Both the position numbers and the translations under genes were made by a program. A stretch of 64,000 nt of DNA from Stakelama pacifica (GTDB taxonomy: Bacteria; Pseudomonadota; Alphaproteobacteria; Sphingomonadales; Sphingomonadaceae): assembly GCF_004361835.1 (NCBI RefSeq), contig NZ_SNWD01000002.1, positions 62,001-126,000 on the forward strand, read 5' to 3'. Below, one piece after another: positions 4,011 through 20,428 of the stretch. Under the pieces are notes generated by a model. That model had not been told where the DNA came from, made no database searches, and was given only the letters and a program-made list of their open reading frames with translations. Positions within the stretch are counted from its first letter, which is position 1. The number at the start of each line of letters is the position of its first letter.

Positions 4011-4517
4011 TCAATCAATCAGGCCATGGCTCCGAAGCGCGCCCAAAATAGCGGAAATCGCCGCTCTCGCTTCGCTATCGATCGTATCGCCGCGGTCCGG
4101 TTCCGCGATGGCCCCCTGTCGCGCGCCGACCACCTGAATGCCGTCAATCGTCACGCCGGTGCCCCGCAAATCGCCGACTCGCCAGCCACCGTTGCGATAG
4201 AATGCCATGCAGTCATGCTGGCGTGACCAGATGCACATTCCCGGCCTCGGCGCGATGAAGCGCCAGCCGCCTCCGGTCCATCCCGCGATCATACCCGCAT
4301 GTCCCGCCCATTCGCCGCTCGCATCGGCACCTGCCACCCACATATCGCCTTCGGCGCGTTCGGCGGGAGGAGCAGCGGCGCCGATCTCCAGAACGATCGG
4401 CTGCACATGCATATCGAGCAGGGTAAGGGCTTCGTTGTGGAACAGCTCCTTTTGCGCCTGTCCGGCCCAGAGCAGCGGCAAATTCAGCCGGGCGGTATGA
4501 TCTTCGCTGACGCTCAT
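4011..4517 (-). CDS. DUF2793 protein at the distal end of the GTA operon
   Basis: 168 residues from ATG at 4517, chosen because it overlaps the previous stop as ATGA and has AAGGAGGAGGA just upstream; a longer in-frame start at 4562 would lie inside the preceding gene. DUF2793 proteins accompany alphaproteobacterial prophage and GTA tail genes. Visible features are the LPLLWAGQAQKE opening, a W-rich repeat core (WVAG, WTGGGWRF, GGWRVGD) and a short helical tail. Its likely role is an accessory or receptor-contacting tail part, inferred from domain and position as the last gene of the cluster. Confidence 0.82.
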   Translation of the reverse strand: MSVSEDHTARLNLPLLWAGQAQKELFHNEALTLLDMHVQPIVLEIGAAAPPAERAEGDMWVAGADASGEWAGHAGMIAGWTGGGWRFIAPRPGMCIWSRQHDCMAFYRNGGWRVGDLRGTGVTIDGIQVVGARQGAIAEPDRGDTIDSEARAAISAILGALRSHGLID

Positions 4518-6661
4518 TGCTTGTCCTCCTCCTTCAAAGATACCGGCGGCGATCGTCCCCAATCGCCCGCTTGCTGCACCATGGCGTTCGCGTTCCAGCC
4601 CCGCGCGCCCGCATAGCGCGGTTCGGAAAGCGCAAGGACGCGCCCGCCATCGCCGGGATCGAACAGATAAGATTCCGCTGCTTCGCCCAGCGGCGTCTCC
4701 GCGCCGTCGATCCAGAGCCAGCCGCTCCGGCTCCGCCGCACCCAGCTGAGCGCTGCCGTCCCGCCCTCGCGCGTCTCGCGAAAATGTACCGGTGACGGCG
4801 GAACGACTGATCGCCCATCAATCGCGACACGCGCTTCGGGTCCCTGCGCCGGATCGTCATCGGTCCCGATCGCACGAATGCGGATTTCGCCGCCGATCCG
4901 CGCGACGGAAACTGCATGTATTAGCATCGTGTCGCGGTCGATCAGCGTGAACCGATCCCCCGCCGCCATCCCGGCGCGATGCCGCTCGGTTCCCCGCAAT
5001 CCGCGCCGCAGCCCGGAAAGGCGCCAGCGCCGCTCGCCCACCGGCGCAGCCTCGGCAAATTGCAGCAATTCCTCGCCCGCCAGCGCCAGATTGGCGCCGC
5101 CGTCCAGCCGCTGCGCATCGGCATTGTTCAGTGTCATCCAGCCTGCGAACAGCTCGACCTCGATATGGTTGTGCCGATCCTCGATCAGCGCGCTCGCGCT
5201 CGGCGCGGGCGTTACGATCCGGCCTATGACCGCCGCCGGCGCGCTGTTGCCCAGCGGCTGCCAGGACGCGCCGCCATCGCTGGTGAGCATCAGCGCCGCC
5301 TGACGCCAGCCCTTGCCCGCACCGCATGCAGCGATCCCGATACGCGGCGAATCCCAGCTCGTATCGTTGAGCAGCGGCAGTTCGAACGCGGTTACATAGC
5401 TTATCCCTATCCGTTCGTCCGGCGCGGGCAGAACCCGCCCGACGCTCGCCCCGCCCGGCAGCGCCCCGCTCGTCACCCGGCGCAGGTCGAGCGTCACGAC
5501 CATCGCCTCGAACGTCCATCCCGCGACGCGCCAGATGCCCGCCTCGCCCGCAATGCGCACGCACGCCCCCGGGCCCACCGGCAGCTGTGCCCAGTCGAGC
5601 GTAACCCGCCGACGCTCCCGCGCCGCCCGGGCTGCGGCAAGGCTCTGTTCGGCCATCGCCTTTGCCGCCACGGCGCGCATCGCGGCGGGAAGCGCCTGTT
5701 TGCGCTCGCTCCCCGAGCCTTGCGAAACGGCGCGTTGCAGCCCCGCCTGATAATCGCGTTCGGGATCGTAATAAGCCAGCGCCACCGCCGACGGCAGCGA
5801 CAGCGTATCGGCGATCCTGCGCGATTTGACGCCCCCGCCCTCATGCTGCGCCCGCGCCCCGCTATCCGCAATCGTCAGCGGCTCCGCATTCCCGTTAGCC
5901 AGCACGATCCGCCCGGTATCCGGAGCAGCCCAGCATCCGCTCGCTTCGGCCAGCTGTTCGACCACTGCGCGGACATCCTCGCCATAAGCGCAATAGCCGG
6001 TCAGCTTCGTACCCGCCTCGCCCGTCACCAGACCCTGGCTGCTATCGGCCAGCACCGCGCCGATATCGACCTCGCCAGCATCCGCGACGATTTCGAATGT
6101 CAGCGACGGGATGCGGTTGCCGAATGGTTCCAGCGCCATATCCTCGAACACCGCATAAGCGCAGCCGCGATGTGCGGGCGTCACCCCCGCCCCTTCCGCT
6201 GCGACGATCAGCGGATCGGGCACCTGATCCTCGCCGCCCGAATGCAAACGAAAGCCGGTGTGCATCTTGAAGTCGCCCGCCGCGCCGCGCAGCAGCTTTC
6301 CGTCGGCCCAGATGCGCCCCACCGACTGCACTGCCCGCGCCGACAACAGCACCGCAAAGGACGCGCTATAGCTGTAGCGCGTCACTTTCGGCGCGCCCTT
6401 GCCGCCTGACGTGGAGCGATGCTCGATCAGATCGGTCGACCAGATCACCGTGCCCGCCACGCGCATCGTGCCGTACAGGCGCGGTATCGCGCTGCCATAA
6501 GAGGATGTCTGCACCGCCAGTTCGGTCAGCCGTGGCCCCTCGCGCCTTTCGGCAGGGAACAGCACCGACCGGTCGATCGTCCGCCCCAGCGCTGCCCCGA
6601 TCCCGGCACCCAGCGGCCCGCCGATCGCCCCGCCCGCGACTGTCAGCATCAGCGTCGCCAT
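4514..6661 (-). CDS. GTA g15-type tail tip (host-specificity) protein, short form
   Basis: 715 residues. The N-terminus (glycine-rich GGAIGGPLGAGIGAALGRTID, then YGSAIPRLYGTMRVAGTVIW) is the classic opening of GTA/phage tail-tip 'megatron' proteins. A central part carries the Phage-tail_3-like region. RcGTA g15 is about 1,300 residues, so this protein lacks about 590 residues, essentially the TIM-barrel section. A barrel-like section appears instead on the DUF2460 protein encoded at 7873-10164. It should form the tail tip with the DUF2163 hub. Its first 296 bases overlap the peptidase frame upstream. Confidence 0.85.
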   Translation of the reverse strand: MATLMLTVAGGAIGGPLGAGIGAALGRTIDRSVLFPAERREGPRLTELAVQTSSYGSAIPRLYGTMRVAGTVIWSTDLIEHRSTSGGKGAPKVTRYSYSASFAVLLSARAVQSVGRIWADGKLLRGAAGDFKMHTGFRLHSGGEDQVPDPLIVAAEGAGVTPAHRGCAYAVFEDMALEPFGNRIPSLTFEIVADAGEVDIGAVLADSSQGLVTGEAGTKLTGYCAYGEDVRAVVEQLAEASGCWAAPDTGRIVLANGNAEPLTIADSGARAQHEGGGVKSRRIADTLSLPSAVALAYYDPERDYQAGLQRAVSQGSGSERKQALPAAMRAVAAKAMAEQSLAAARAARERRRVTLDWAQLPVGPGACVRIAGEAGIWRVAGWTFEAMVVTLDLRRVTSGALPGGASVGRVLPAPDERIGISYVTAFELPLLNDTSWDSPRIGIAACGAGKGWRQAALMLTSDGGASWQPLGNSAPAAVIGRIVTPAPSASALIEDRHNHIEVELFAGWMTLNNADAQRLDGGANLALAGEELLQFAEAAPVGERRWRLSGLRRGLRGTERHRAGMAAGDRFTLIDRDTMLIHAVSVARIGGEIRIRAIGTDDDPAQGPEARVAIDGRSVVPPSPVHFRETREGGTAALSWVRRSRSGWLWIDGAETPLGEAAESYLFDPGDGGRVLALSEPRYAGARGWNANAMVQQAGDWGRSPPVSLKEEDKQ

Positions 6662-7067
6662 CGCTCTTCTCCCCGCTCGTCACTCGCCAATATCCCTCGA
6701 CCGGCCAGGGCGGATCGCCCGGCCGGAACACCACTTTGCGCAGCATCGCATCGGCATGGACCAGCCCGCCGGGCACCAGCACCGCCAGATGGATCTGCCC
6801 CGGCCCGGCCATCGCGACGAGAACATCGCCGGACGCCGGCACCTCCACGCGCTTCAGCCCGGCGCGCATCAGCGCTGCCTCCGCCTTGCCCCTGTCCCCG
6901 CTGCGCAAGCCATAGCCGGTCGCAACCGGTCCTAGCCGATCGCTCCCCAGCGCCGCCGCGGCCAGCCCCACACAATCCAGCCCGAACGCCGGATCGCGCC
7001 CATGCAGCCGGAACCGCACGCCGATCATCGCCATCGCCGCCTCAGCGGCACGCTCCCCCGGAGTCAT
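6366..7067 (-). CDS. GTA g14-type NlpC/P60 peptidase with long C-terminal overlap
   Basis: The first about 135 residues are a normal NlpC/P60 cell-wall peptidase: catalytic Cys32 in FGLDCVG, His93 in GQIHLAV, and a third polar position at His104. It would open peptidoglycan during DNA delivery. The start overlaps the DUF2163 stop as ATGA. After residue about 135 the frame stays open for another 98 residues inside the tail-tip gene in a different frame. That tail is R/D/G-rich with no family resemblance, so the ancestral stop near 6650 was probably lost. The functional protein may be only the first part. Confidence 0.75.
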   Translation of the reverse strand: MTPGERAAEAAMAMIGVRFRLHGRDPAFGLDCVGLAAAALGSDRLGPVATGYGLRSGDRGKAEAALMRAGLKRVEVPASGDVLVAMAGPGQIHLAVLVPGGLVHADAMLRKVVFRPGDPPWPVEGYWRVTSGEKSDGDADADSRGRGDRRAAGCRDRGSAGADDRPVGAVPCRKARGATADRTGGADILLWQRDTAPVRHDARGGHGDLVDRSDRASLHVRRQGRAESDALQL

Positions 7068-7876
7068 TCGCCCGGATAGCGCGTCAGCAGGTCGATCCCC
7101 GGCAGATACGGCTCTCCGCGAAAATTCCCTGCATTGGCAAAGCGCTCCGCACAGGTCGAAAGCTGTTTGTCACACCCCTCGACCAGCTCGACCAGCGCGC
7201 CTTCCCCCGCAAAGCGCGGCGGGCTGCGCAGCGTGACGGTCGCGCCGTCCGACACCGCAATCGCATCGCGCAGCCCGCTATTGCCGCCGCTCATCCAGCG
7301 CAGCATGCCGCAGCCATAGGCATTGGCGACCGGCTCGGCCCGATCGATCCCCAGCACCGCGCCTTCCACCGCAACCACCCGCGCAAAGCGCCGCCGCCCC
7401 GCCATCGCCACCCGGCACCGCGCATCGCCCAGCATCGCGCGGCATCCGGGTGAGGTCACTTCGTTCACCGGCAGGTCGAGCGCCGCCGCAATCCCGCGCA
7501 GCTCCGCAGTAAAGCCCTGATCCTCCATCGCCACATCGCTGATCGTCCCGCTGGCCAGCACCAGCGGCTCGCTGCCCGTCTCCCAGTCGCAGGCGAACAG
7601 CGTCACTGTCGCCCCTTCCCAGCGCCCGGCGAGCAGATCGGCCTCGCTGATCGCATCGCTGCACATCGCGCCGGCAATCTCGACATTGTCAGGCGCAAAA
7701 TCGGCGCTCCGCTCGATCGCCGAGGGCACCATCCCCGGCGACGCGCGATAGCGAAGGCCATCGATCATCAGATCGCGATCATGCGCGGTCAGCCCGATCG
7801 CTACCCCGTCGCGCCGCTCGATCCGCCAGCAAAAGGTCATGGCGGTCAGCGACCCCTCTAACCACGCCATGCTCAT
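7064..7876 (-). CDS. GTA g13-type DUF2163 baseplate hub protein
   Basis: 270 residues, full length for DUF2163. The N-terminal half (AMTFCWRIERRDGVAIGLTAHDRDL) and the C-terminal half with cysteine-rich motifs (GCRAMLGDARCRV; VEGCDKQLSTCAERF) match the hub protein of RcGTA, which carries an iron-sulfur cluster in that particle. The cysteines needed for such a cluster are present here. The start overlaps the upstream DUF2460 stop by ATGA, and the stop overlaps the peptidase start by ATGA, so the three are translationally coupled. Confidence 0.9.
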   Translation of the reverse strand: MSMAWLEGSLTAMTFCWRIERRDGVAIGLTAHDRDLMIDGLRYRASPGMVPSAIERSADFAPDNVEIAGAMCSDAISEADLLAGRWEGATVTLFACDWETGSEPLVLASGTISDVAMEDQGFTAELRGIAAALDLPVNEVTSPGCRAMLGDARCRVAMAGRRRFARVVAVEGAVLGIDRAEPVANAYGCGMLRWMSGGNSGLRDAIAVSDGATVTLRSPPRFAGEGALVELVEGCDKQLSTCAERFANAGNFRGEPYLPGIDLLTRYPGE

Positions 7877-10164
7877 GCCTCGCGAACCTCGATCAGCGGC
7901 ACCGATGACGCCACCCCTGCCAGAAACGTCGCGCGCGCAACGCTCAGCCGGTCCTCGGCAAAGCGCACCGGCACATCGAAGGAGAAGCCCGCAGTTACCA
8001 CCGCACCGTGCGCGGGCGCTTCGTCCAGCTCGACCCAGCCGCCCTCGGCCAGCGTGAAATTCGCTGTCTCCACCCCCGCCACCGCCACGCGAACGCTGCC
8101 CGCCACCGGCCGGGTGATCCGCCGCTCGCTCTCGCCATGCCGCTTCACCAGCGCAAAGCGGACGCTCTCGCCGTCGCCCGTCCCGATCCGCTGATCGGTC
8201 GCCGCACCTTCGGGGCCGGAGCGGTGATCGAACGGATCGCGCAACCGGAACCCCCGTGCCGGGCCCATCCGCGCGCGATAGAAATCGATCAGCGTCGCGA
8301 TATCGCTTTCGGATCGCACCCCCGGTCCGACATCATAGCGACCCCGTGCCGCTGCCCAGTCGGCATTGCGCTTCTCATATCCGCCCGCGCTGGTGACGAT
8401 CGCGGTCGATACTTCGGTCGTCACTTCGGCCTCGCTGCCCAGCGCAATCGGGAACAGCACATCGTCAAAAGCCTGCACCGCCGCCTCCTCGTCAAAATGA
8501 ATGAAACCGTCGCGCATCACCTGCGGCAGTGCCCAGACGAACGTCGCCGCCACCCCGCGTGCCTGCCCGCGCAGCGCCGCTGCATGAATCGCATCCCATT
8601 GCCCGCGATCCTCGGGGCGAAGCACGAACCCCGCAAAATAATGCTGCTCGTCCGCCGGATAGCCCAGCCGCGCCGCGACTCGCGCAATCGCCCGCGCGCT
8701 CGCCGCTTCATTGCCCGCCTGCGCCCAGTCATAATCTTCGAGCTGCAGGATATCGAAGGCAGGCCGTGCCCAGCCGACCGGCAGGTTCATCCGCTGCACC
8801 TCCGGCGCGCGCGCATCGAGCACCGTCGGCAGATAGGCGAGCAACATCACCACCGCCCCCGGCGCCGCCGCCCTTACCGCATCGCGCAGCGCCAGCGTCG
8901 ACGCCGCCAGCACTGCCCCTGCCTGATCGAGCAAATCGCGCTGCGCCTCCGAAAGCGCCCCGCGCACGTTCGCGATCGCCACCGGCGCCCCACCGAACGC
9001 GTCTTTCGCTGCCGCATCGTACAGGCAGGGCCGCCCATCGGGCATCACCCACCACCAGGGCTCGCCGATCTGAAATTGGACGGCCAGCCCGGCCTCAGCT
9101 GCGATCCCGACGAACGCCGCCGCCACGCTGCGCAAATATCCCATCGCCCCGTCATGCGCGGGCGACAGCAGGGTCGATGGCGGCTCCCATCCGGTCAGCG
9201 CCGGCGACCCATCGCTCGCCCGCTGCTTCCAGTCGTTCCAGCAATGCGCGTCGAACAATTCGTAGGAAAGCGACCAGATCACCCCGAACCCAAGTGCCTT
9301 TGCACAGGCCGCAAAATCGCGATGCCATGCAGCACACGGGGCGTTCAGCGTCCCGCCCTTCAGGCTGACATACAGCCCGCCCGAAACCTGCTCGAGCCGG
9401 AAATAATGGCTCATCCCGACATAATGGACGATATCGCCGCGATAGCCGAGGTGCAGGATGTTACGCAGCACCCGCGCCGGGGTCAGGTGATAGCTGTCGT
9501 CATAGCCGTTCGCGATCCCCAGCCGATGTTCGGGCACGATCGCGTCGCCGATCGCGATGACGCTGCCCGATCCTTCGCAAACGATCTCGCTCAGTTCCGC
9601 CCAGCCCTCGCCCGGCGCGGCGAGCATCGCGTCGCTGCCGTCATAATCGGGCGGCACCAGCGACACGAACATCCGGTCGACATCGCCCGCCCAGACCGGA
9701 TCGGCCTCATCGGGAAGCAAAAACCCCCCGGAAAGCTCGCCGAAATCGAGCCGGACCCGCGCATCTTCGGGCGCGCCGTGCGCATAATTCCACAGCCGCA
9801 CATACCATGCGCGCGGCGCACCCGCGGCATCGCGCCCCTCGATCGTCAGCACCGGCCCGTTGACCGCATCCAGGGCGCGCACCCCCGACGATCGCCAGCG
9901 AAACGACAGCACGCACCGCCGATAATCGCGATCCGTCGCATAGCGCAGCAACGGATGATCGTACGCATCCTCCGACGCCCAGATCAACCCGGCCAGATCA
10001 TCGCGCCGGTAAAAGGCGCACGTCACCCGCAGCGAATCGTGCGCCTCTGCCGTCACCGCCGCCATCATCGGCCTTGGAAAATTCACCGTCCAGAATCGCG
10101 GATCGAACCGCTTGATCGCATCGGCATCCTGCCCGCGCCGCGCCTCGGCAAGCCAATATCCCAT
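7873..10164 (-). CDS. GTA g12-type distal tail protein fused to a glycosidase-like N-terminal region
   Basis: 763 residues. The last 190 or so (from about 570) are a DUF2460 distal-tail domain (SAGGYEKRNADWAAARGRYD, then LIDFYRARMGPARGFRLRDP). In RcGTA that protein is only about 210 residues. Here residues 1-560 are extra: a beta-rich N-terminal part (1-210), then a region resembling a TIM-barrel glycoside hydrolase, with acidic candidates Glu368 in QIGEPWWW and Glu476/Asp477 in QLEDYDW. Hydrolase fold and activity are inference. Together with the short tail-tip protein at 4514-6661 this suggests that the barrel function sits on a different polypeptide. The start overlaps the tape-measure stop by one base. 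Confidence 0.82.
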   Translation of the reverse strand: MGYWLAEARRGQDADAIKRFDPRFWTVNFPRPMMAAVTAEAHDSLRVTCAFYRRDDLAGLIWASEDAYDHPLLRYATDRDYRRCVLSFRWRSSGVRALDAVNGPVLTIEGRDAAGAPRAWYVRLWNYAHGAPEDARVRLDFGELSGGFLLPDEADPVWAGDVDRMFVSLVPPDYDGSDAMLAAPGEGWAELSEIVCEGSGSVIAIGDAIVPEHRLGIANGYDDSYHLTPARVLRNILHLGYRGDIVHYVGMSHYFRLEQVSGGLYVSLKGGTLNAPCAAWHRDFAACAKALGFGVIWSLSYELFDAHCWNDWKQRASDGSPALTGWEPPSTLLSPAHDGAMGYLRSVAAAFVGIAAEAGLAVQFQIGEPWWWVMPDGRPCLYDAAAKDAFGGAPVAIANVRGALSEAQRDLLDQAGAVLAASTLALRDAVRAAAPGAVVMLLAYLPTVLDARAPEVQRMNLPVGWARPAFDILQLEDYDWAQAGNEAASARAIARVAARLGYPADEQHYFAGFVLRPEDRGQWDAIHAAALRGQARGVAATFVWALPQVMRDGFIHFDEEAAVQAFDDVLFPIALGSEAEVTTEVSTAIVTSAGGYEKRNADWAAARGRYDVGPGVRSESDIATLIDFYRARMGPARGFRLRDPFDHRSGPEGAATDQRIGTGDGESVRFALVKRHGESERRITRPVAGSVRVAVAGVETANFTLAEGGWVELDEAPAHGAVVTAGFSFDVPVRFAEDRLSVARATFLAGVASSVPLIEVREA

Positions 10165-10733
10165 TACCCCGCCTCCGCCAGCGCGGCCTTCACCGCGCGC
10201 GCCACCTGCCGCCCTGACCGGGCGAGCGCCTGCGGCGCATCGCCTCCGGCCGCATTGATATTGATCGACACGCGCACCTCACGCGGCCCGCCTGCCGCCT
10301 GCGGCACTACGTTTCCGCTCGTCGTCGGCACGAACAATTCGGGTCCGCGCTCACCGACCAGATAGGGCCGCGCCGGGCTGACCGGTCCGCCCGTCGCCCG
10401 CCCCGGCAGCCCGACCAGCGCGCTCAGCAGCGCTCCCGCCGACGGTGCAGCGCTGCCCTCGCCGCCGCCGCCCAGCAACGCCGCGATACCCCCCTCAATC
10501 GCCTTGGCCGCAATCGTGTCGAGCACCGCGACCGCGACCTTTTCCAGCTCCTCGAACCCCAGCTTTCCGCTGCGGATCGCCCGGATGAGCGTCGTTTCGA
10601 CCGAGCGCTCGGCGCGCTGCACCCCGGCCGCGAACGGTCCCTCCATTTCCTGCCGCATCGAATCCACATCGCGCGAAAAGCCGCGCGTATCGGCGCGAAC
10701 GCTGACCATCAGCCGTTCGATTTCCTCATCCAT
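10164..10733 (-). CDS. GTA g11-type short tape-measure protein
   Basis: 189 residues, far shorter than phage tape measures and in the size class of RcGTA g11 (about 220). Residues 1-60 are helical (DEEIERLMVSVRADTRGFSRD), followed by a glycine-rich hydrophobic centre (AIEGGIAALLGGGGEG) and the conserved RATGGPVSPARPYLVGERGPELF element. It sets tail length and possibly lines the DNA channel. It overlaps the upstream chaperone-like gene by 8 bases. The small size predicts a short tail. Confidence 0.88.
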   Translation of the reverse strand: MDEEIERLMVSVRADTRGFSRDVDSMRQEMEGPFAAGVQRAERSVETTLIRAIRSGKLGFEELEKVAVAVLDTIAAKAIEGGIAALLGGGGEGSAAPSAGALLSALVGLPGRATGGPVSPARPYLVGERGPELFVPTTSGNVVPQAAGGPREVRVSININAAGGDAPQALARSGRQVARAVKAALAEAG

Positions 10734-10923
10734 CGGGATCTGCCTCCATCATCCGGGCGATCAGCACGCTATCGGCGGGCTCCGCCTCGTCGCCCCGCGC
10801 CGCGATCAGCAACGCGGCAAACTCCGCCGGGGTGGCGCGCCAGAACTGATCGGGCGACCAGCCGAACCAGAGCCCGGCCGCCCCGGCCAGCCGCCCGGCA
10901 CGCCGCGCGAACGTTTCGCTCAC
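10726..10923 (-). CDS. GTA g10.1-type tail assembly protein (rcc01693 family)
   Basis: 65 residues. The core WSPDQFWRATPAEFAALLIA is the signature of the small GTA protein encoded between g10 and the tape measure, treated as a tail assembly chaperone partner. The ATG overlaps the g10 stop as ATGA. It probably works with the g10 product in loading the tape measure, by analogy with phage G/GT chaperones; that role is inferred from position. Confidence 0.85.
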   Translation of the reverse strand: MSETFARRAGRLAGAAGLWFGWSPDQFWRATPAEFAALLIAARGDEAEPADSVLIARMMEADPDG

Positions 10924-11228
10924 CGCCCCGCCAATATCTGTTGCAGCAGCATGCGCAGCGCCGGGCTCGCCGCCGCCAGCCCGCCCGCCGTCACAGCCTC
11001 ACCGAACGCCTCGCGGCTCAGCCCCTCGGGCACCGCGACCAGACAATGCCAGAACAGCCCGACCATCTCGCCCAGCGCCAGCCGACCCGCCACCGCCCGC
11101 TCGACCAGCGCGAATAGCGGCCCCAGCTCCCCCTCCGCCGCGACCAGCGCCGCAAAGCTGGGGCGCAGCAGCAACATCTCGCCCCCGACCCGAATCTGCG
11201 CCTCGCCGCGCTCTGGATTGGCGCTCAT
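10920..11228 (-). CDS. GTA g10-family tail protein (GTA_gp10)
   Basis: 102 residues of the gene-transfer-agent gp10 family: MSANPERGEAQIRVGG start, LRPSFAALVAAEGELGPLF centre, and a helical tail. Such proteins are small tail-assembly factors of RcGTA-like particles. The gene overlaps the tail-tube stop by ATGA and the g10.1 start by ATGA. No membrane segment or signal peptide is visible. Confidence 0.88.
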   Translation of the reverse strand: MSANPERGEAQIRVGGEMLLLRPSFAALVAAEGELGPLFALVERAVAGRLALGEMVGLFWHCLVAVPEGLSREAFGEAVTAGGLAAASPALRMLLQQILAGR

Positions 11229-12045: not shown

Positions 12046-12245
12046 GCCGCCCATCCCGCGATCCAGCGCCACCGCGCATCGTTGATCCATCGCCGCCACA
12101 ATCCCCGTCCGGTCAGCACGACGCCGTCATCGGTCACCTCGACGCCGATCCCCGGCACATCGACCGAACCAGCGATCCGCTTCGCCTCGGCCCGGGCCGC
12201 CTCACGCGCCAGCACCTGCCCGCGCGCCTCCAGTCGTTCGAACAT
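12042..12245 (-). CDS. Small GTA head-tail protein in the g7 position
   Basis: 67 residues, with a helical start (MFERLEARGQVLAREAARAEAKRI), a beta-rich middle (VPGIGVEVTDDGVVLTGRGL) and a Trp-rich end. I do not recognise a named domain. RcGTA g7 (about 110 residues) occupies the same slot between connector and DUF3168, where a stopper protein is expected, so a reduced stopper is the best guess. It overlaps the next gene by ATGA and follows the previous stop after one base, so it is surely translated with them. Confidence 0.7.
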   Translation of the reverse strand: MFERLEARGQVLAREAARAEAKRIAGSVDVPGIGVEVTDDGVVLTGRGLWRRWINDARWRWIAGWAA

Positions 12246-12883: not shown

Positions 12884-13945
12884 TCAGTTCGCGGCGAACT
12901 TCATCAGCTTGATCGCCTCCGAATTGCTCACCATCCCGCCGACACGCTTGGTGGCATAGAAATGGACGAACGGTTTGTTGCTGTACGGATCGCGCAGAAT
13001 CTGCGTCGCGCTGCGCTCGGCGATCAGATAGCCCGCCCTGAAATTGCCGAACGCGATTGCCGGCTGGTCGGGCGCGATATCGGGCATATCCTCGGCCTCG
13101 ACCACCGGATAGCCGAGCAATGTAGCGGGCTGCCCCGATGCCAGCGACGGCTGCCACAGAAATGCACCGTCCGCCGTTTTCAGCTTGCGGACATGCGCCA
13201 GCGTCGCCGAATTCATCACGAACACCGCCCCCTGCCGGTACGGCGCGCGCAGCGACTGAACCAGATCGATCAGCAGTTCGTCGGGCTCCTCGCCAAACGC
13301 ACCATCCGCCCCGCTCGGCACATATTGCAGCGTGCCAAAGGCGCGGGTTGCGTCCCCGGTGCGCGCCATGGCGGCGTTCAGGAACCCGCTCGGCCGATTG
13401 ATGCCATTGCCCGCAACGAACGCCGCCCCTTCGGCCCGCGCAAAGTCGCTCGCAATCTCCCCCGCCAGCCAGCTTTCGACATCGAATGCCGCATCGTCGA
13501 GCATCGCCTGACTCGCCGCCGGATTGGCGTAAAGCTCACCCATCGGCGGCGCGATCTCGTTGAACACCGGGCTTGCCGTTTCGGGCCGTGCATCGCCCTC
13601 GCCGGTCCAGCCCGACGGCGTACCGCCGCTCGTCACCAGCTTGCGATAGCCTGCGCTGCCCACCTTCACGACATTGGCGATGCTGCGGATCGGCGAAATA
13701 TCGGCCAGCGTCCGGTCGATCATCGCATCGATTTCCTGCGGCACGGCATAGCCGCCCGCACCGTCGCTCACCCCCGACATCGCCTTCAGCTCGACCGCAC
13801 CACTGCCCGACCGCAAAAACCCGCCGAACAGCTCCGCCCCCGGCGCGGTGCTACCCATCAGCATCGGTCGCGCACCCGGCACGCCCGCTTTCTCCTGCCC
13901 CGCAAAGGTCATGCTCAGCGCATCGCCCGTAATCTGTGTCGTCAT
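12884..13945 (-). CDS. GTA g5-type major capsid protein (HK97 fold)
   Basis: 353 residues. The mature capsid core from about residue 58 is very clear (SGVSDGAGGYAVPQEI, SPIRSIANVV, LYANPAASQAMLDDA, LGYPVVEAEDMPD, YATKRVGG). The region before it is only about 57 residues, glycine/proline-rich and without the heptad coiled coil of the HK97 delta domain or RcGTA g5. The protease for maturation is encoded immediately upstream with an ATGA overlap. A shortened scaffold arm is the notable feature; the core residues look intact. Confidence 0.93.
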   Translation of the reverse strand: MTTQITGDALSMTFAGQEKAGVPGARPMLMGSTAPGAELFGGFLRSGSGAVELKAMSGVSDGAGGYAVPQEIDAMIDRTLADISPIRSIANVVKVGSAGYRKLVTSGGTPSGWTGEGDARPETASPVFNEIAPPMGELYANPAASQAMLDDAAFDVESWLAGEIASDFARAEGAAFVAGNGINRPSGFLNAAMARTGDATRAFGTLQYVPSGADGAFGEEPDELLIDLVQSLRAPYRQGAVFVMNSATLAHVRKLKTADGAFLWQPSLASGQPATLLGYPVVEAEDMPDIAPDQPAIAFGNFRAGYLIAERSATQILRDPYSNKPFVHFYATKRVGGMVSNSEAIKLMKFAAN

Positions 13946-14340
13946 GCTATTTTCTCCTCTTCAACCACCACTGCGTGAACCCGGGCGAGCCGCTGCATCG
14001 GCTGCGCCACTAGGCTGACCTCAATCAGATCCAGCGCCGTTAGTTCACGATATGTTCTTTGGCGTGCCGCCCTGACGCGATATCCGAAGGACAGGCCCGT
14101 CACCCCGCCACCAGCCACCAGCCGCGCCAGCGCCGGATCAGCGATCCTTCCGGTCACGCGAAGCCCGCGCGCATCCTCACCGATCAGCGCAACCTCGCCC
14201 ACCGGCGCACCGCTATGCTGCCACAACAGCGGCACGCCCTCGCGCACCGCACCCGCTCCGAATGCGCCTTTGCGCACCACATCGCCGCCCCGGTCGGGGC
14301 AATCGAAGATCGCGGCATAGCCCGCGAACCGCACGCTCAT
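13942..14340 (-). CDS. GTA g4-type prohead protease (HK97 family S78)
   Basis: 132 residues from ATG at 14340, chosen because it overlaps the upstream stop as ATGA. The N-terminus (VRFAGYAAIFDCPDRGGDVV) and the LLWQHSGAPVG motif, containing the catalytic His, plus GLSFGYRV with the Ser, are the family's hallmarks. It cleaves capsid N-terminal segments during maturation. It is short for the family but holds the core. An in-frame start at 14349 is a weaker alternative. Confidence 0.9.
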   Translation of the reverse strand: MSVRFAGYAAIFDCPDRGGDVVRKGAFGAGAVREGVPLLWQHSGAPVGEVALIGEDARGLRVTGRIADPALARLVAGGGVTGLSFGYRVRAARQRTYRELTALDLIEVSLVAQPMQRLARVHAVVVEEEKIA

Positions 14341-14645
14341 TTCACCCATTCGGAAAAGCCCGTCCGCACGGCGAGGCCGATCAGCACCAGCGCCAGCCCC
14401 AGCCGCACCAGCCAACCGATCGCCGCCTTCAGCGCCGATTTCTTGGCGTCGCGCCATGCCGCCAGCAATTGCCGCAGCTCGCCCATGTCCCTTGCCGCCT
14501 GCGGATCATCCAGCCCCATATGTTTCAGCGCACGCATCGCGCCCAGTTCGCCCGCCTCCTCGACGATCGCGCGCAGCGTCACCCGCGCCGCGCCTGCCGC
14601 CTCTGCCTGTTCGATCAGGTGCGTCAGCACCGGTTCGTTGCTCAT
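14337..14645 (-). CDS. GTA g3.5-type DUF6127 small protein
   Basis: 102 residues. A helical, charged first part (EPVLTHLIEQAEAAGAARVTLRAIVEEAGE) is followed by a single hydrophobic segment at about 75-94 (AIGWLVRLGLALVLIGLAV), so it is probably membrane-associated. It sits between portal and protease, the g3.5 slot of RcGTA-like clusters, and is coupled to the protease gene by ATGA. Function is unknown; family assignment rests on sequence pattern and position. Confidence 0.8.
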   Translation of the reverse strand: MSNEPVLTHLIEQAEAAGAARVTLRAIVEEAGELGAMRALKHMGLDDPQAARDMGELRQLLAAWRDAKKSALKAAIGWLVRLGLALVLIGLAVRTGFSEWVK

Positions 14646-14989: not shown

Positions 14990-16117
14990 TCAACCCGCCT
15001 GCCCAATCCCCAGCATCGCCCGCTTCTCCTCATCCGACAGAAACCCCGCCGCGCTCACCTGCGCCCATAGCCTTTCGCGATCCTCGGCCAGCGCCGCCAC
15101 CCGGTCGAGATCGACCGACAGCGCCGCCCCCGGTATCCATCCGGCCAGCATCTGTTCCAGCGCCGACAATATTTTCCCCGTCAGCGGCAGGATCGCCTGC
15201 CGCCACAGCGCGCGGTTCGCCTCGCGATAATTGGCATAGGTGCTGTCGCCGGGCAGCCCGAGCAGCATCGGCGGCACGCCAAAGGCCAGCGCAATCTCGC
15301 GCGCCGCACTCGCCTTCAGCCCGACAAAATCCATATCGGCGGGCGACAGGCTCATCGCCTGCCATTTCAGCCCGCCTTCCAGCAGCATCGGGCGCCCCGC
15401 ATTGGCCGCGCCCGCAAAGGCCGCCTGCATCTCCGCATTCAGCCGCTCGAATTGCTCAGGGGACAGCGACGCTCCATCGCCCGATTCGTACGTCAGCGCC
15501 CCGCTTGGCCGCGCGGCATTGTCGAGCAGCGCCTTGTTCCATTTCGCCGCCGCATTGTGGATCGCGACCGCCCCCGCCGCCGCGCCCAGACACCCCAGCC
15601 CATAATGGTCATCGACCGGATGGAAGCTGCGGATATGCGCCACCTGCGGCCGCCCGCCCGCATCCTCTGCGGCAAGCCGCGTCATCCGCTCCCCCACCCG
15701 ATAGCGATAGGCGACGGGCCACCCTTGCGCATCCGGCTCGACGCTCACCCGTTCGGGACGCAGCGCGAACAATTCGCCGACGCCGCCCGCCCCGTCCGCA
15801 ATCGCCTGCACATAGCCATTGCCGTGCAGCAGCAGATGCGACGCCAGCCTCTCCATCAGCCCCTGCCCGCCAGACGTCGCCCCGATCAGCGCCGCCAGCT
15901 CCGGCGAAGACGCAGCAACCGGCGCGGCCCCCACCCCTTCGGCAACCAGCCGAACCGCCCGCTGCGCCACCGCATTGCCCAGATACGCATCGCGCACCTG
16001 CGCCTCATAGCTGCGCGGCCATTCCCCGATCACCGGCACCCCGGCACTGACACGCGACAACACCGGACGCGACTCCTCGCGCCCGGCCGATTTTCGGCCG
16101 AACCATTTCATACCCAT
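14990..16117 (-). CDS. GTA g3-type portal protein
   Basis: 375 residues, normal for HK97-family portals. Conserved stretches include LLLHGNGYVQAI, HIRSFHPVDDHYGLG, PPMLLGLPGDSTYANYREANRALW and a C-terminal helical wing. It forms the dodecameric DNA gate at the capsid vertex. Unlike the compact tail genes, it is separated from the large terminase by about 2.4 kb holding two host genes and repeats. It is therefore unlikely to be transcribed only with the terminase unless read-through is efficient. Confidence 0.92.
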   Translation of the reverse strand: MGMKWFGRKSAGREESRPVLSRVSAGVPVIGEWPRSYEAQVRDAYLGNAVAQRAVRLVAEGVGAAPVAASSPELAALIGATSGGQGLMERLASHLLLHGNGYVQAIADGAGGVGELFALRPERVSVEPDAQGWPVAYRYRVGERMTRLAAEDAGGRPQVAHIRSFHPVDDHYGLGCLGAAAGAVAIHNAAAKWNKALLDNAARPSGALTYESGDGASLSPEQFERLNAEMQAAFAGAANAGRPMLLEGGLKWQAMSLSPADMDFVGLKASAAREIALAFGVPPMLLGLPGDSTYANYREANRALWRQAILPLTGKILSALEQMLAGWIPGAALSVDLDRVAALAEDRERLWAQVSAAGFLSDEEKRAMLGIGQAG

Positions 16118-16510: not shown

Positions 16511-17182
16511 CTACCCCTTGCGCGCCAGCCAGATCACATGCCGCGGCCCCTTGCCGTTGCTGCGCGCCCGCACCGCGACTTCCTCCACCGCAAACCCCGC
16601 CTCACGCACCCGCCGCGCAAAGGCAGGATCGGGCGCCGCCGACCACACGGCCAGCACCCCGCCAGGCTTCAGCGCTGCCTTCGCCCGCGCCAGCCCGGCA
16701 TGCGAATACAGCCCGTCATTGCCCTCACGCACAATCCCGTCCGGCCCGTTATCGACATCGAGCAGGATCGCGTCATACGCCCCCCGCTCCGCCGCAATCA
16801 CCGCACCGACATCGCGGATCACCACCGACACGCGCGGATCGTCCAGACACCCGGCCGCAAGCTCCGCCATCGGCCCGCGCGCCCATTCGATAATCTTGGG
16901 CACCAGCTCAGCAACGACCAGCTCGACCTCGCCCCCAGTCACGGCCAGCGCCTTGCGCAGCGTAAAGCCCATGCCGTACCCGCCGATCAGCCAGCGCTGC
17001 GCACCCCGCTCCGCCAGCCGCTCGGCAGTCAGCGTCGACAGCGCTTCTTCCGACCCGCTCATCCGGCTGTTCATCAATTCGTTGCGCTCGAGCACGATCA
17101 TATAATCGTCGCCCCGGCGGAACAGGCGAAGCGGCTCGCCGCCCGGCACCTGCGCCGTATCGATCAGCTCGCGCGGCGTCAT
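16511..17182 (-). CDS. Spermidine-synthase-like methyltransferase-fold protein
   Basis: 223 residues from ATG at 17182, chosen for its ATGA overlap with the preceding stop. The Rossmann motif LIGGYGMGFTLR stands where spermidine synthases have GGGDG, then VVAELVPKIIEW, an acidic motif DVDNGPDG, and a C-terminal strand pattern. It binds an S-adenosylmethionine-type ligand by family analogy. The altered glycine motif and small size mean the substrate cannot be assigned. It forms a two-gene unit with the NRDE protein, inserted between terminase and portal genes of the GTA. Confidence 0.75.
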   Translation of the reverse strand: MTPRELIDTAQVPGGEPLRLFRRGDDYMIVLERNELMNSRMSGSEEALSTLTAERLAERGAQRWLIGGYGMGFTLRKALAVTGGEVELVVAELVPKIIEWARGPMAELAAGCLDDPRVSVVIRDVGAVIAAERGAYDAILLDVDNGPDGIVREGNDGLYSHAGLARAKAALKPGGVLAVWSAAPDPAFARRVREAGFAVEEVAVRARSNGKGPRHVIWLARKG

Positions 17183-17931
17183 GGCGCGACCTCGGGCCAC
17201 AGAAATTCGACTTCGCTGTCGCCCACCGCATTGCCTTTCGCATCGAAACGCCGCTCGGCGATCACGCCATGTCCTTCGGCATCCACCGTCACCACGGTCG
17301 AACAGCGTGTGCCATAGCGCGGATTGCGGATGAAGATCGGCGATCCCTCCGGCTCATCCCTGTCCCCGCCATATCCCGTCATCCCGCGCGGAGGCTCTTC
17401 ATCGGCCAGCGCCGCAAACAGCGTTTCGCGCTCGCCCGTCCCGCGCTCGATCCATTCGGCCACCGCGCGTTCCAGCTTCTTCGTCTTGGGCCAGGGCTTG
17501 TCCATCACCCCGTTCGACAGGCCATGCATCCCCGGCCCCAATGGCCGCACCAGCCCCTCGGGCCGATTGGTCATGAAGTTCACCTGATCGCCATCGATCG
17601 CGATCAGGTTGAACGGATTATAGGCTTCCGGCAGTGCGCTGACGATCGCCGCGCTCCCCCGCCGCAACATATCGCTGACCAGCGCCCCGCGCGACAATTT
17701 GTGCCGGTCCGGCGGTCCGGCGCGCACATTGGTCACGACCGCAAAGCGCCCGCCTTCCGCAACGCCAAGCCAGGTTCCCCCGCCCAGCACGTCGCGGCCG
17801 CCAATCACCCGCAGCGCATCCTCCCACCGCGCCAGCGGCAGCGCCGCCCGGTCATGAAACTCATCCCGATTGCCTGCGACAACCAGCCGCCACTGCGGAC
17901 TCGCCCGCCACGCCAAAGCCAAAACACACAT
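17179..17931 (-). CDS. NRDE family (TANGO2-like) protein
   Basis: 250 residues. The N-terminus MCVLALAWRA, with Cys2 as the potential N-terminal nucleophile, and the family-defining NRDEFHDRAALPLARW are visible, then GGTWLGV and GALVSDML. TANGO2/NRDE proteins are found in bacteria and mitochondria; roles in heme handling and lipid metabolism have been proposed. The gene ends in an ATGA overlap with the spermidine-synthase-like gene. Nothing suggests a particle function, so it is best read as a host gene in the GTA region. Confidence 0.85.
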   Translation of the reverse strand: MCVLALAWRASPQWRLVVAGNRDEFHDRAALPLARWEDALRVIGGRDVLGGGTWLGVAEGGRFAVVTNVRAGPPDRHKLSRGALVSDMLRRGSAAIVSALPEAYNPFNLIAIDGDQVNFMTNRPEGLVRPLGPGMHGLSNGVMDKPWPKTKKLERAVAEWIERGTGERETLFAALADEEPPRGMTGYGGDRDEPEGSPIFIRNPRYGTRCSTVVTVDAEGHGVIAERRFDAKGNAVGDSEVEFLWPEVAP

Positions 17932-18284: not shown

Positions 18285-18289
18285 TGCCG

Positions 18290-18575: not shown

Positions 18576-19868
18576 TCACCCCAACAACCGTATCCCGACC
18601 TGCGCCCGCCGCTTGAGCATCAACTCGGTGAGCCCCCACACCAGCGCATCGGCGCGATCGGGCGACCGCCCCGGCCCTTCATAGCCGCCCCCGCTCACCA
18701 GCCCGCACATCTCATCCTCCAGCGCGGGAAACGCGCCGATATGCGCGACCTTCCCGCCCTCATACAAAGCCGCGACCGGCTCGGCGCGCGCCACCTTCCC
18801 CCGGCTCGCATGGACCAGCTTTACCGGCAGCGCGGCATCGGCGGCAATCAGCACGCTGCGCACCATCTCACCGCCATTATTCGCCTCGGCCACCACCCGA
18901 TCCGCACCATTACGCACCGCGCACGCCGCCACCGCCCGCGCCCAGCGTTCGGGGCTGGTCGCCGCGACGCTCGCATCCTCCAGCACATAGGCTTTCCCAT
19001 CGCGCCCCAGCGCCACCGCAACGATCCCGCACGCATCGCCCTTGCTCCCGGCAGGCGGATCGACCGCTACCACCACCCGGCGCAGCGCAGGCACCGCCCG
19101 CACCCGCACATTCTCCAGCAAGTCGCGACTCCATAACGCCCCCGCGACATCCTCGATCAGTTCGCCGTCCAGCTCCTGCCGACCCAGCCGCGTGCCGCCA
19201 TAATGTTCCTTCACCGCATCGATAAACGCGGGGGGAAGCTGCACATTATCGGTCGTCCGCCCGCGCACCAGCGCCACATCGTCGCGCTTCATCATCTCGC
19301 GCAGCAGCGGGATCGGGCGCGGTGTCGTCGTCACCAGCACGCGCGGTGCTTCGCCCAGCCGCATGCACATCGCCAGATTGTCCCAACATTCCCTCGGATA
19401 CGACCATTTCGCAATCTCATCGCACCATGCGGCGGTAAATTGCGGCCCGCGCAGCCCGTCGGGCCGCTCGCCAGAATGGACAAAGGCCTGCGCGCCATTG
19501 CGCCACACCAGCCGCCCGCGCGACACTTCGAAGGTCGGCAGGTCGTCGTCGCGCACCACGCTCGCCAAAATCCCGCTTTCGCCTTCGATCATAACGCTGC
19601 GCACCTCCGCCATGGTCGCACCGACCAGCGCGATCCGGGCACCCGAGTCGGCTTCGGCAAGGCTACGCACCCATTCCGCGCCGGTTCGCGTCTTGCCGAA
19701 CCCGCGCCCGGCAAGCATCAGCCAGGTCCGCCAGTCGCCCGGCGGCGGCAATTGCCGGGGATCGGCCCATACCTCCCAGGTGCCGAGCAGCGTCTTCCAG
19801 TCCTGATCCCGTTTCTCCAACCTGCGTCGCTCTTCGGCGGTGGCAAGGAGTTCCGCGCGCTCCTTCAC
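18576..19868 (-). CDS. GTA g2-type large terminase (TerL)
   Basis: 430 residues, full length. ATPase: Walker A GRGFGKT at 54-60, Walker B with Asp150-Glu151 in TAAWCDEIAKW. Nuclease: VVVAVDPPAGSKGDACGI with the metal-binding Asp, and a C-terminal DRADALVWGLTELML with a second Asp. It packages DNA into GTA heads by headful. It overlaps the small terminase stop (ATGA). No lesion is visible in the catalytic residues. Confidence 0.94.
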   Translation of the reverse strand: MKERAELLATAEERRRLEKRDQDWKTLLGTWEVWADPRQLPPPGDWRTWLMLAGRGFGKTRTGAEWVRSLAEADSGARIALVGATMAEVRSVMIEGESGILASVVRDDDLPTFEVSRGRLVWRNGAQAFVHSGERPDGLRGPQFTAAWCDEIAKWSYPRECWDNLAMCMRLGEAPRVLVTTTPRPIPLLREMMKRDDVALVRGRTTDNVQLPPAFIDAVKEHYGGTRLGRQELDGELIEDVAGALWSRDLLENVRVRAVPALRRVVVAVDPPAGSKGDACGIVAVALGRDGKAYVLEDASVAATSPERWARAVAACAVRNGADRVVAEANNGGEMVRSVLIAADAALPVKLVHASRGKVARAEPVAALYEGGKVAHIGAFPALEDEMCGLVSGGGYEGPGRSPDRADALVWGLTELMLKRRAQVGIRLLG

Positions 19869-20428
19869 GCCTCCTCTCCTGCATCTCCGGCGTCGTCATT
19901 GTCGATCACCGTGCCCCTCGCGATCTGCGCCGCCGCGATTCTGTCCAGCCGCCGCAGCACTTCGGCCTTGGCCTCTTCCTGCGTCATCCCGCGAATCCCC
20001 GCCACGGCAGGGCCGCCGCCCGTCCGGTCATAGATTTCCGGACGCCGCGCCTTCAGGATGAACATCGCCAGCGCGTCCGAATAATTGCGGACATTGCCGA
20101 CGATCTCGCCGCGATAATACACCGGCTTTTCGACCCCCCGCGTCGCGCGATCGACCAGTTCCGCCTCCAGATTGTCGAGCGCCTCGGCCACCGCCGCATC
20201 CCAGTCGCGTGCGAATTTGGGCTGTTTCGCCCGGTGCGCATAGACGGTCGAACTCGACAACCCCGCCTCGCGCGCCGCCCGGCTGACATTGCCGGTCTGG
20301 CGTAGCACTTCCAGAAAGCACGCCTTGCGCACCGGCAGCGACACGGTGCGCGCCTTCGCGACCGCTTTACGCCTTACCCCTTTGGTTGCTCGCCTCGCAC
20401 CTTGACCGGTCACCCGCTCGCCCACCAT
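19865..20428 (-). CDS. GTA g1-type small terminase (TerS)
   Basis: 187 residues. A basic N-terminus precedes a helix-turn-helix at about 33-65 (FLEVLRQTGNVSRAAREAGL, SSSTVYAHR), then a helical oligomerisation part (ALDNLEAELVDRATRGVEKP, YSDALAMFILKARRPEIY). It recognises or presents DNA to TerL. It is the first gene of the cluster. The ATG has GGGAGGGG upstream, and a hairpin with a T-run ends about 18 bases before the ATG. Confidence 0.85.
   Translation of the reverse strand: MVGERVTGQGARRATKGVRRKAVAKARTVSLPVRKACFLEVLRQTGNVSRAAREAGLSSSTVYAHRAKQPKFARDWDAAVAEALDNLEAELVDRATRGVEKPVYYRGEIVGNVRNYSDALAMFILKARRPEIYDRTGGGPAVAGIRGMTQEEAKAEVLRRLDRIAAAQIARGTVIDNDDAGDAGEEA

What the first reader, a model, noticed from the sequence alone, without database searches (positions are those of the whole stretch)
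4011..20428. A complete-looking gene-transfer-agent locus in a sphingomonad
Seen: one strand carries, in RcGTA order, small and large terminase, portal, a g3.5-type protein, protease, capsid, connectors, tail terminator, tube, two small tail proteins, short tape measure, distal tail, hub, peptidase and tail-tip protein. All frames are open and key catalytic residues are present. Known: RcGTA-like clusters occur across Alphaproteobacteria and package random host DNA; spikes, lysis and fibre genes are usually encoded elsewhere. Inference: this strain may still make particles.
Basis: partly seen in the sequence, partly recalled or inferred. Interest (0 to 1): 0.72.

Follow-up and report, generated by a model that had tools for sequence, protein, structure and literature searches.

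The report
Sphingomonad gene-transfer agent, rebuilt tail tip
This bacterium carries an intact-looking gene-transfer agent (a domesticated phage that, where studied, ships host DNA between cells), and across its family the barrel-shaped part of the tail tip has been replaced by a different, phage-N4-like module attached to another tail protein.

Summary
[quoted passage not shown] Such clusters in Sphingomonadales are already in print.

(1) Two host-type genes (TANGO2/NRDE, SpeE-like) separate TerL and portal. (2) The 'distal tail' gene g12 encodes 763 aa: a distal-tail domain plus about 560 extra N-terminal residues, a carbohydrate-binding-module-like domain and a TIM barrel, homologous to the N4 sheath proteins gp65 and gp64. 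(3) The tail-tip protein g15 lacks RcGTA megatron's 'peripheral' TIM-barrel domain (PF13547).

This is family-wide: PF23845 in 80 of 119 genomes, PF13547 over cut-off in 0 of the same 119. Phage relatives carry the same module on the hub, again with a short megatron. The two modules show no sequence homology, so this looks like replacement, not relocation. One published study notes only that g12 and g15 differ in length in Sphingomonadales.

Likely function: a glycan-binding, perhaps glycan-cleaving, collar at the tail tip; untested, as is particle production.

The parts
19865..20428 (-). g1-type small terminase (187 aa, HTH)
   Evidence: PHROG 4044 terminase small subunit E 7e-33; weak HTH hits below cut-off
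18576..19868 (-). g2 large terminase (430 aa)
   Evidence: Pfam Terminase_6N 3e-25 and 6C 3e-22; nucleotide-binding and nuclease motifs seen by eye in the translation (motif names recalled)
17179..17931 (-). TANGO2/NRDE-family gene, not a GTA gene, between g2 and g3
   Evidence: Pfam TANGO2 3e-54; between g2 and g3 in 2 of 56 loci
16511..17182 (-). SpeE-like (spermidine synthase domain) gene, not a GTA gene, between g2 and g3
   Evidence: Pfam Spermine_synth 6e-7; between g2 and g3 in 11 of 56 loci
14990..16117 (-). g3 portal (375 aa)
   Evidence: Pfam Phage_portal 2e-73; RcGTA portal E 1e-102
14337..14645 (-). g3.5-position protein, DUF6127
   Evidence: Pfam DUF6127 5e-28
13942..14457 (-). 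g4 prohead protease
   Evidence: Pfam Peptidase_S78 6e-17
12884..13945 (-). g5 major capsid (353 aa)
   Evidence: Pfam Phage_capsid 3e-87; RcGTA capsid E 4e-84
12247..12813 (-). g6 adaptor
   Evidence: TIGR02215 7e-14; RcGTA adaptor E 1e-5
12042..12245 (-). 67-aa ORF in the g7 (stopper) position; a similar ORF in the three relatives looked at (L182, L184, L188); function unproven
   Evidence: translations; no Pfam or NCBIfam hit
11650..12099 (-). g8 tail terminator
   Evidence: Pfam Tail_completion_gp17 1e-9; no PHROG hit
11225..11632 (-). g9 tail tube
   Evidence: Pfam Phage_tail_2 9e-44
10920..11228 (-). g10
   Evidence: Pfam Phage_TAC_11 (GTA-gp10) 2e-19
10726..10923 (-). g10.1
   Evidence: Pfam Phage_TAC_6 9e-10
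10164..10733 (-). g11 short tape measure (189 aa)
   Evidence: PHROG 30701 (unknown function) 2e-65; tape-measure PHROGs, best 2e-11
9532..10164 (-). g12 residues 1-211: NCTSP_N domain, N4 gp65-like, carbohydrate-binding-module-like beta-sandwich
   Evidence: PF23844 1.6e-99; N4 sheath chain Z 17.5 over 184 residues, CBM11/CBM30 chains at Z 8-9
8485..9531 (-). g12 residues 212-560: TIM barrel, N4 gp64-like
   Evidence: PF23845 2.9e-172; N4 gp64 Z 29.4 over 302 residues, 29% identity
7873..8469 (-). g12 residues 566-763: distal tail (DUF2460) domain
   Evidence: DUF2460 2e-65; RcGTA distal tail E 2e-38
7064..7876 (-). g13 hub
   Evidence: TIGR02218 5e-55; Gp84_N 5e-50
6366..7067 (-). g14 peptidase-type protein; overlaps g15 by 296 bases
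   Evidence: PHROG 329 2e-6; junction; no Pfam hit
4514..6661 (-). g15 short megatron (715 aa), lacking the peripheral TIM-barrel domain
   Evidence: matches RcGTA megatron 23-210 and 791-1274 only; NF048004 387.9 bits against cut-off 800
4011..4562 (-). DUF2793 protein, probable tail-fibre anchor
   Evidence: Pfam DUF2793 2e-28; phage R4C chain 8gtc_S E 2e-9

Best explanation
It is a vertically kept RcGTA-like gene-transfer agent of the Sphingomonadaceae lineage whose tail tip has been rebuilt. RcGTA's trimeric megatron carries a peripheral TIM-barrel domain; here that domain is gone. Instead the distal tail protein, a hexamer in RcGTA, carries at its N-terminus a two-domain module: a carbohydrate-binding-module-like beta-sandwich and a glycoside-hydrolase-like TIM barrel. 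Both are homologous to the six-fold receptor-binding sheath (gp65, gp64) of phage N4. Inferred, not shown: six copies form a collar at the tail tip that binds, and perhaps cuts, the surface polysaccharide of recipient cells, the kind of job shown for RcGTA's separate tailspike TspA. DNA then passes through the short tube, hub and megatron as in RcGTA; production would be switched on by a GafZ-like activator and ended by the holin/endolysin pair encoded elsewhere. Separate likelihoods, my judgement: RcGTA-like cluster 0.95; module replacement 0.9; still making particles 0.6; glycan-acting collar 0.5; catalytic barrel 0.35.
For: Homology and order. Barrel and distal tail domain in one open frame: 82 of 85 genome loci and 147 of 158 virus-collection loci, which were fetched by two queries with this module. 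PF23845 in 80 of 119 family genomes (three of them split in pieces); PF13547 over cut-off in 0 of the same 119. At class level 29 of 289 carry PF13547 and 4 of 289 PF23845, with none in common. g15 joins its N- and C-parts with 29-101 aa between in 80 of 80 loci, against an estimated 443-745 aa in 25 megatrons of other Alphaproteobacteria. N4 homology by sequence and fold; the N4 sheath is six-fold and gp65 is receptor-binding (PMC12633501, passages). RcGTA's distal tail is a hexamer whose N-terminal Ala2 meets the baseplate, and megatron's peripheral domain is residues 230-744 (PMC7296036, passages). D222, E302, E368, E476, D479, D552 are identical in 40 aligned sequences, five of them non-GTA. 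Pooled dN/dS of the three g12 parts 0.17-0.20 in 20 pairs. Shared flank. Lysis and regulator genes.
Against: No particle, enzyme or transfer data. A shared fold shows no function, and I could not point to the usual pair of catalytic glutamates at beta4 and beta7: E368 sits at beta4, but the beta7 end reads YFAGF with no acid (the rule is recalled). Over all 1837 pairs with g12 N-domain plus barrel dS of 0.05-0.75, median dN/dS per gene is higher (0.23-0.83), and for eight genes (g1, g6, g8, g10, g10.1, g11, g13, g14) the highest single pair exceeds 1. Some relatives have lost the cluster by deletion. g14 lacks the stop position of most relatives and the stopper is unproven. TspA was not looked for. 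Spearman agreement of the barrel's distances with other cluster genes is only moderate (0.34-0.54). The N-domain's third and fourth fold matches, just above the CBMs, are complex I assembly intermediates (Z 9.1-9.2).
Confidence: 0.6

Rival explanations
1. An ordinary, still mobile prophage (or a recent remnant of one) that happens to share RcGTA-like genes.
For: The integrase-bearing phage record L271/G463 and the prophage-like locus L180 share tail-tip genes and much of their order.
Against: No integrase, replication or lysis family among the 20 ORFs of the cluster region scanned in Pfam; an OmpA-family gene within 3 kb downstream in 78 of 85 loci; family-wide occurrence; the 80 virus-collection loci kept of 586 confirmed lie on contigs of at most 19.8 kb.
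Confidence: 0.04
2. A GTA cluster that no longer makes particles, kept by recent descent or for another use.
For: Five of six examined relatives with a megatron match but no PF23845 have lost large parts of the cluster; g14 stop position lost; host genes between g2 and g3; higher dN/dS medians over all pairs; no wet evidence.
Against: Pooled dN/dS 0.10-0.36 per gene and no pair at or above 1 among the 20 close pairs; window against nearest relative L182 0.18-0.44 for the 15 GTA genes compared, g1 not compared; lysis and regulator genes present.
Confidence: 0.3
3. The g12 module is a purely structural or receptor-binding sheath, without enzyme activity.
For: Its closest solved relatives are N4 sheath gp64/gp65, described as sheath and receptor binder in the passages I read (PMC12633501); no clear pair of catalytic acids.
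Against: After N4, the next fold matches of the barrel are glycoside hydrolases (beta-galactosidase, beta-amylase, PgaB) and acids at strand ends are invariant.
Confidence: 0.4
4. The megatron peripheral domain simply moved from g15 to g12 (relocation of one module).
For: Similar size (about 515 and 560 aa), both described as TIM barrels, loss in one gene and gain in the other.
Against: Profile comparison finds no homology (best probability 0.6%); the g12 module is N4-like in sequence and fold and each carries its own Pfam family.
Confidence: 0.06

Closest known systems
RcGTA of Rhodobacter capsulatus (PMC7296036, PMC13420450; passages)
   Same: Gene order and homologous portal, capsid, adaptor, distal tail, hub and megatron ends; a lysis pair encoded elsewhere (that RcGTA's is too is recalled).
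   Different: g15 lacks the peripheral TIM-barrel domain (230-744); g12 has an N4-like N-terminal module; two host genes between g2 and g3; a DUF2793 gene is inside the cluster; the GafZ-like protein has no GafY part beside it in the 3.4 kb seen.
RcGTA-like clusters of Sphingomonadales (PMC6821227, PMC7360931, PMC8067484; passages)
   Same: This is one of them; widespread occurrence is already published.
   Different: In the passages I read the domain change is not described; [quoted passage not shown]
Phage N4 non-contractile sheath gp65/gp64 (PDB 9lc0, 9yf4, 9yf5)
   Same: g12 N-domain matches the gp65 chain 51-373 and g12 262-563 matches gp64 98-417; six-fold in N4.
   Different: Two subunits in N4; here one chain fused to a distal tail domain on an RcGTA-type tail tip.
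Phages and prophages with PF23844/45 fused to an RcGTA-type hub (L180, L269-L276)
   Same: The module, a short megatron where measurable and, in L180 and L271, a DUF2793 gene beside it.
   Different: The module is on the hub (g13); the distal tail protein is separate where found; L271 has an integrase.
Marine siphophage vB_DshS-R4C (PMC10276861; passages)
   Same: RcGTA-type tail tip with a fibre protein; the DUF2793 protein matches chain 8gtc_S.
   Different: Megatron of 1447 aa; distal tail protein of 214 aa.

Membership tests
RcGTA-like (alphaproteobacterial type I) GTA | At least 9 RcGTA head-tail homologues with no more than 5,000 bp between neighbours (criterion in PMC6821227) | tested here: met
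   g2, g3, g4, g5, g6, g8, g9, g10, g10.1, g12 (C-part), g13, g15 by profile; largest gap about 2.5 kb (g2-g3). The criterion's own BlastP coverage rule was not run.
RcGTA-like (alphaproteobacterial type I) GTA | Fixed, vertically kept chromosomal position | tested here: met
   OmpA-family gene within 3 kb downstream of the cluster in 78 of 85 loci; the ORF at 1543-2262 found in 47 and the amidohydrolase gene in 31 of 85; the other flank is not shared (EamA 0, RpoN 0, VTT 7, LptB 2 of 85). No host-gene tree was made.
RcGTA-like (alphaproteobacterial type I) GTA | Genes under purifying selection | tested here: met
   Pooled dN/dS 0.10-0.36 for 15 GTA genes in close pairs; g1 only, median 0.64 over 36 pairs; medians over all 1837 pairs 0.23-0.83
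RcGTA-like (alphaproteobacterial type I) GTA | Megatron with peripheral TIM-barrel domain (RcGTA form) | tested here: not met
   g15 matches only the two ends; no PF13547 match in the genome. Taken as variation within the group, since published surveys count Sphingomonadales clusters as RcGTA-like.
RcGTA-like (alphaproteobacterial type I) GTA | Packages mostly random host DNA in particles | not testable with these tools
   needs culture
RcGTA-like (alphaproteobacterial type I) GTA | Dedicated regulator and lysis genes elsewhere in the genome | tested here: met
   PF11351 GTA_holin_3TM with GH108 endolysin; DUF6456 next to a divergent XRE-type gene. That DUF6456 marks GafA/GafZ is recalled, not taken from a call.
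Non-contractile tail sheath (N4-type, PF23844/PF23845) | Both domains present in order | tested here: met
   PF23844 at 17-206 and PF23845 at 211-554
Non-contractile tail sheath (N4-type, PF23844/PF23845) | Forms a six-fold sheath round the tail and binds a receptor | not testable with these tools
   structure of the particle needed
Glycoside hydrolase | Active-site acids and measured activity | tested here: inconclusive
   invariant acids and GH-like fold, but no clear catalytic pair and no assay
Active prophage | Integrase, replication or lysis genes with the structural genes | tested here: not met
   none among the 20 ORFs of the region scanned in Pfam; the rest of the genome was not scanned for integrases

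The most novel reading that the evidence does not exclude
In Sphingomonadaceae GTAs a six-copy, N4-related glycan-binding and glycan-cutting collar on the distal tail protein has replaced the three-copy megatron TIM barrel (and, in function, the RcGTA tailspike TspA), so that the particle carries its own capsule- or biofilm-opening enzyme matched to sphingomonad exopolysaccharide.
Probability: 0.3. Interest if true: 0.72.

Novelty: new variant of a known kind. Interest (0 to 1): 0.5.

Why it matters
[quoted passage not shown] A bacterial family that lacks one of these and has an unrelated barrel on a neighbouring protein is a natural replacement experiment: it suggests that a barrel at the tail tip is needed, and it predicts what to measure. 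It may also mean that surveys using the RcGTA megatron with a high coverage filter (that preprint used more than 75%) under-count sphingomonad GTAs, and that GTA tail tips kept changing by module exchange after domestication or came in more than one form.

Tried and rejected
Relocation of the megatron barrel into g12: rejected on profile comparison. RcGTA megatron did not appear among the listed fold matches of the g12 model (at most 50 rows shown); that says nothing either way. Spearman correlation of gene distances was too noisy to date the fusion. TspA, GafY, CckA/CtrA and competence genes were not searched. The class-wide samples hold only four genomes of the window's family, so the mutual exclusion of the two barrels rests mainly. 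Of 16 family genomes with a megatron match but no PF23845 (comparison) I looked at six: five have lost large parts of the cluster, G001 is a different prophage-like element with a separate distal tail protein and a 1167-aa megatron; ten were not examined. Three of 85 loci do not show barrel and distal tail domain in one open frame (L136, L148, L167). L099 was left out by a naming slip in my script. The g14 query was cut to its first 133 residues in my scripts (from then on). L351-L354 were fetched but not analysed. The dN/dS method is Nei-Gojobori in my own script, without a codon model or a pseudogene control.
Full report
WHAT IS THERE. The window is C2:62001-126000 of a 3.98 Mb, 31-contig genome. 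By its g12 relatives it is a sphingomonad: the best named match is Stakelama sediminis at 76%, with many Sphingomonas species close behind. [quoted passage not shown] Solved RcGTA proteins are matched by the portal (E 1e-102), capsid (4e-84), g15 (5e-52), distal tail part of g12 (2e-38) and adaptor (1e-5).

Between large terminase and portal lie about 2.5 kb holding a TANGO2/NRDE gene (17179-17931, E 3e-54) and a SpeE-like gene (16511-17182, E 6e-7), with repeat-like sequence on either side. A SpeE-like gene sits there in 11 of 56 relatives' loci and a TANGO2 gene in 2 of 56; the gap ranges from 21 to 2809 bases. The g3.5-position ORF is a DUF6127 protein. A 67-aa ORF in the stopper position has no family match in Pfam or NCBIfam. 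g14 overlaps g15 by 296 bases; in 74 of 83 relatives' loci g14 ends at or before base 4 of g15, in 2 it overlaps by 5-30 bases and in 7 by more, up to 290, so the long overlap is unusual but has arisen more than once. Downstream of g15 a DUF2793 protein matches a chain of the R4C tail-tip structure 8GTC (E 2e-9); Kogay et al. list DUF2793 as a tail fibre protein co-evolving with GTA genes (PMC10883770, passages).

THE TAIL TIP. g12 is 763 aa where RcGTA's distal tail protein is 210 aa. Residues 567-761 are DUF2460; residues 17-206 and 211-554 match PF23844 and PF23845, the 'non-contractile tail sheath' N-domain and TIM barrel. g15 is 715 aa where RcGTA's megatron is 1304 aa; it matches RcGTA residues 23-210 and 791-1274. 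RcGTA's megatron domains are iris 1-46, adhesin-like 47-229, peripheral 230-744, central 745-984 and fibre-binding 985-1304 (PMC7296036, passages), so the missing part is the peripheral domain.

DISTRIBUTION. PF23845 is in 80 of 119 family genomes (in three of them, G042, G044 and G093, only as split pieces) and 42 of 61 genus genomes (four of those only partial). PF13547, the megatron barrel, reaches its cut-off in 0 of the same 119 family genomes (one match at E 0.001 below cut-off). Across the class, PF13547 is in 29 of 289 and PF23845 in 4 of 289, with no genome in both lists. Megatron matches occur in 94 of 119 family genomes and none reaches the model's 800-bit cut-off. In 80 named relatives plus five unnamed ones, barrel and distal tail domain are in one open frame in 82 of 85, and g15 joins its N- and C-parts in one frame with 29-101 aa between them in 80 of 80 where both were found; in 25 RcGTA-type megatrons of other Alphaproteobacteria the same stretch was estimated at 443-745 aa.

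WHERE THE MODULE COMES FROM. Profile comparison of g12 1-565 with that megatron stretch finds nothing (best probability 0.6%). The module's relatives are phage proteins: in a phage collection its first 560 residues match 322 of 50,697 records, 223 of them Escherichia phages; the rows listed include phi92, V5 and Phapecoctavirus types and phages of Pseudomonas, Achromobacter, Acinetobacter and, as labelled, Campylobacter (60 of 322 rows seen). Among solved structures it matches N4 gp64 by sequence (E 2e-40) and the N4 sheath (E 7e-19) (profile 1e-17). In N4 the heterodimer of gp64 and gp65 forms a six-fold non-contractile sheath and gp65 is the receptor-binding protein (PMC12633501, passages). 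A predicted model of g12 (mean pLDDT 81) aligns its barrel to gp64 at Z 29.4 (302 residues, 2.8 A, 29% identity); after the two N4 entries the rows are glycoside hydrolases, led by a Thermus beta-galactosidase (Z 23.6), a beta-amylase (22.4) and PgaB (22.1). The N-domain, predicted alone (mean pLDDT 80), aligns to the N4 sheath chain at residues 51-373, Z 17.5 (184 residues, 3.3 A, 23%); the next rows are two complex I assembly intermediates (Z 9.1-9.2) and carbohydrate-binding modules of families 11 and 30 (Z 8-9). A fold does not prove function, and Z near 8 can mean only a common arrangement.

INTERMEDIATES. In genome G334 of another family (L180) and in eight virus-collection records (L269-L276) the same two domains are fused to the hub (g13) instead. 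The distal tail protein is separate in L180 and in the 6 of 8 records where it was found; the megatron is short in L180 and in the 7 of 8 records where it could be measured. One of five such records checked has an integrase. In the virus-collection loci as a whole the GTA form dominates, 147 of 158 having barrel and distal tail domain in one frame, and all 127 of the 158 in which both ends of the megatron were found have the short form; these loci were fetched with the module as query, so they are not an independent sample of phages. That pattern is what one expects if the two barrels do the same job. Acids D222, E302, E368, E476, D479 and D552 are identical in all 40 sequences compared (35 GTA, 5 non-GTA).

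IS IT A LIVING GTA? For 20 disjoint close pairs of loci (19 taken from the list printed, plus the window with L182), pooled dN/dS per gene runs from 0.10 (tail tube) to 0.36 (terminator) over 15 GTA genes; the g12 parts are 0.20, 0.17 and 0.17; no single pair reaches 1. Over all 1837 pairs with g12 N-domain plus barrel dS of 0.05-0.75 the medians are higher, 0.23-0.83, and in eight genes the highest pair exceeds 1; I put this down to saturation in GC-rich codons but did not prove it. One flank is shared: the OmpA-family gene at 2794-3900 has a match within 3 kb downstream of the cluster in 78 of 85 loci; the genes of the other flank are not shared. The genome holds one GTA-type holin (PF11351) directly after a GH108 endolysin, and one DUF6456 gene divergent from an XRE-type gene, which resembles the RogA/gafYZ control of Caulobacter (PMC9632790, passages); that DUF6456 marks GafZ is recalled. 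Against this, five of six examined relatives with a megatron match but no PF23845 have lost large parts of the cluster, so decay happens in the family.

MECHANISM. Shown: the parts, their order and their homologies. Established for RcGTA: the distal tail protein is a hexamer, its N-terminal Ala2 contacts the baseplate, and the tail carries twenty-one oligosaccharide-binding sites (PMC7296036, passages). Inferred: six N-terminal modules here project next to the place where RcGTA's peripheral domains sit, bind surface polysaccharide, and may cut it. In RcGTA a separate tailspike, TspA, degrades biofilm and docks on tube, distal tail and megatron peripheral loop; it was found in Rhodobacterales but not in other Alphaproteobacteria with megatron (PMC13420450, passages). 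A built-in collar would be an alternative solution.

KNOWN AND NEW. GTA clusters in Sphingomonadales are known (PMC6821227, PMC7360931, PMC9765227, and a Sphingomonas AAP5 cluster in PMC8067484; passages). [quoted passage not shown] I found no description of the replacement in the listings of ten searches of the held open-access library or in the passages read from 15 papers; subscription papers and supplements were not searched. I rate it a new variant of a known kind.

Noticed in passing
MT840053.1 (L350): A 5.4 kb 'Bacteriophage sp.' record from human faecal samples encodes a g12 relative (63.6% identity over 91%); probably a sphingomonad GTA fragment rather than a phage.
   Followed up: partly
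L189-L346: IMG/VR holds many sphingomonad-type GTA clusters filed as viruses: 147 of 158 fetched loci have the GTA-type g12 fusion.
   Followed up: partly
L146, L174: Records titled Arthrobacter sp. TPD3018 and Bacillus sp. 2B10 carry sphingomonad-type clusters (g12 67% and 69% identical), probably mislabelled or contaminated assemblies.
   Followed up: no
PDB 8gtc chain S: A 230-aa chain of the R4C tail-tip entry is named Ribonuclease III in the PDB list but matches the DUF2793 protein of the cluster and is probably the tail fibre.
   Followed up: no
window 14886, 16356, 16426, 18403, 21550: REP-like repeats (GTCATTGCGAG...) lie in gaps of the cluster, around the two inserted host genes and beyond its upstream end.
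   Followed up: partly
window 6366-6661: g14 overlaps g15 by 296 bases; 7 of 83 relatives' loci also overlap by more than 30 bases, so the usual stop next to the g15 start has been lost repeatedly.
   Followed up: partly
L181 (G001): A prophage-like element with a hub of 536 aa and a megatron of 1167 aa, both with extra stretches that match no Pfam family: perhaps a third tail-tip module type.
   Followed up: no
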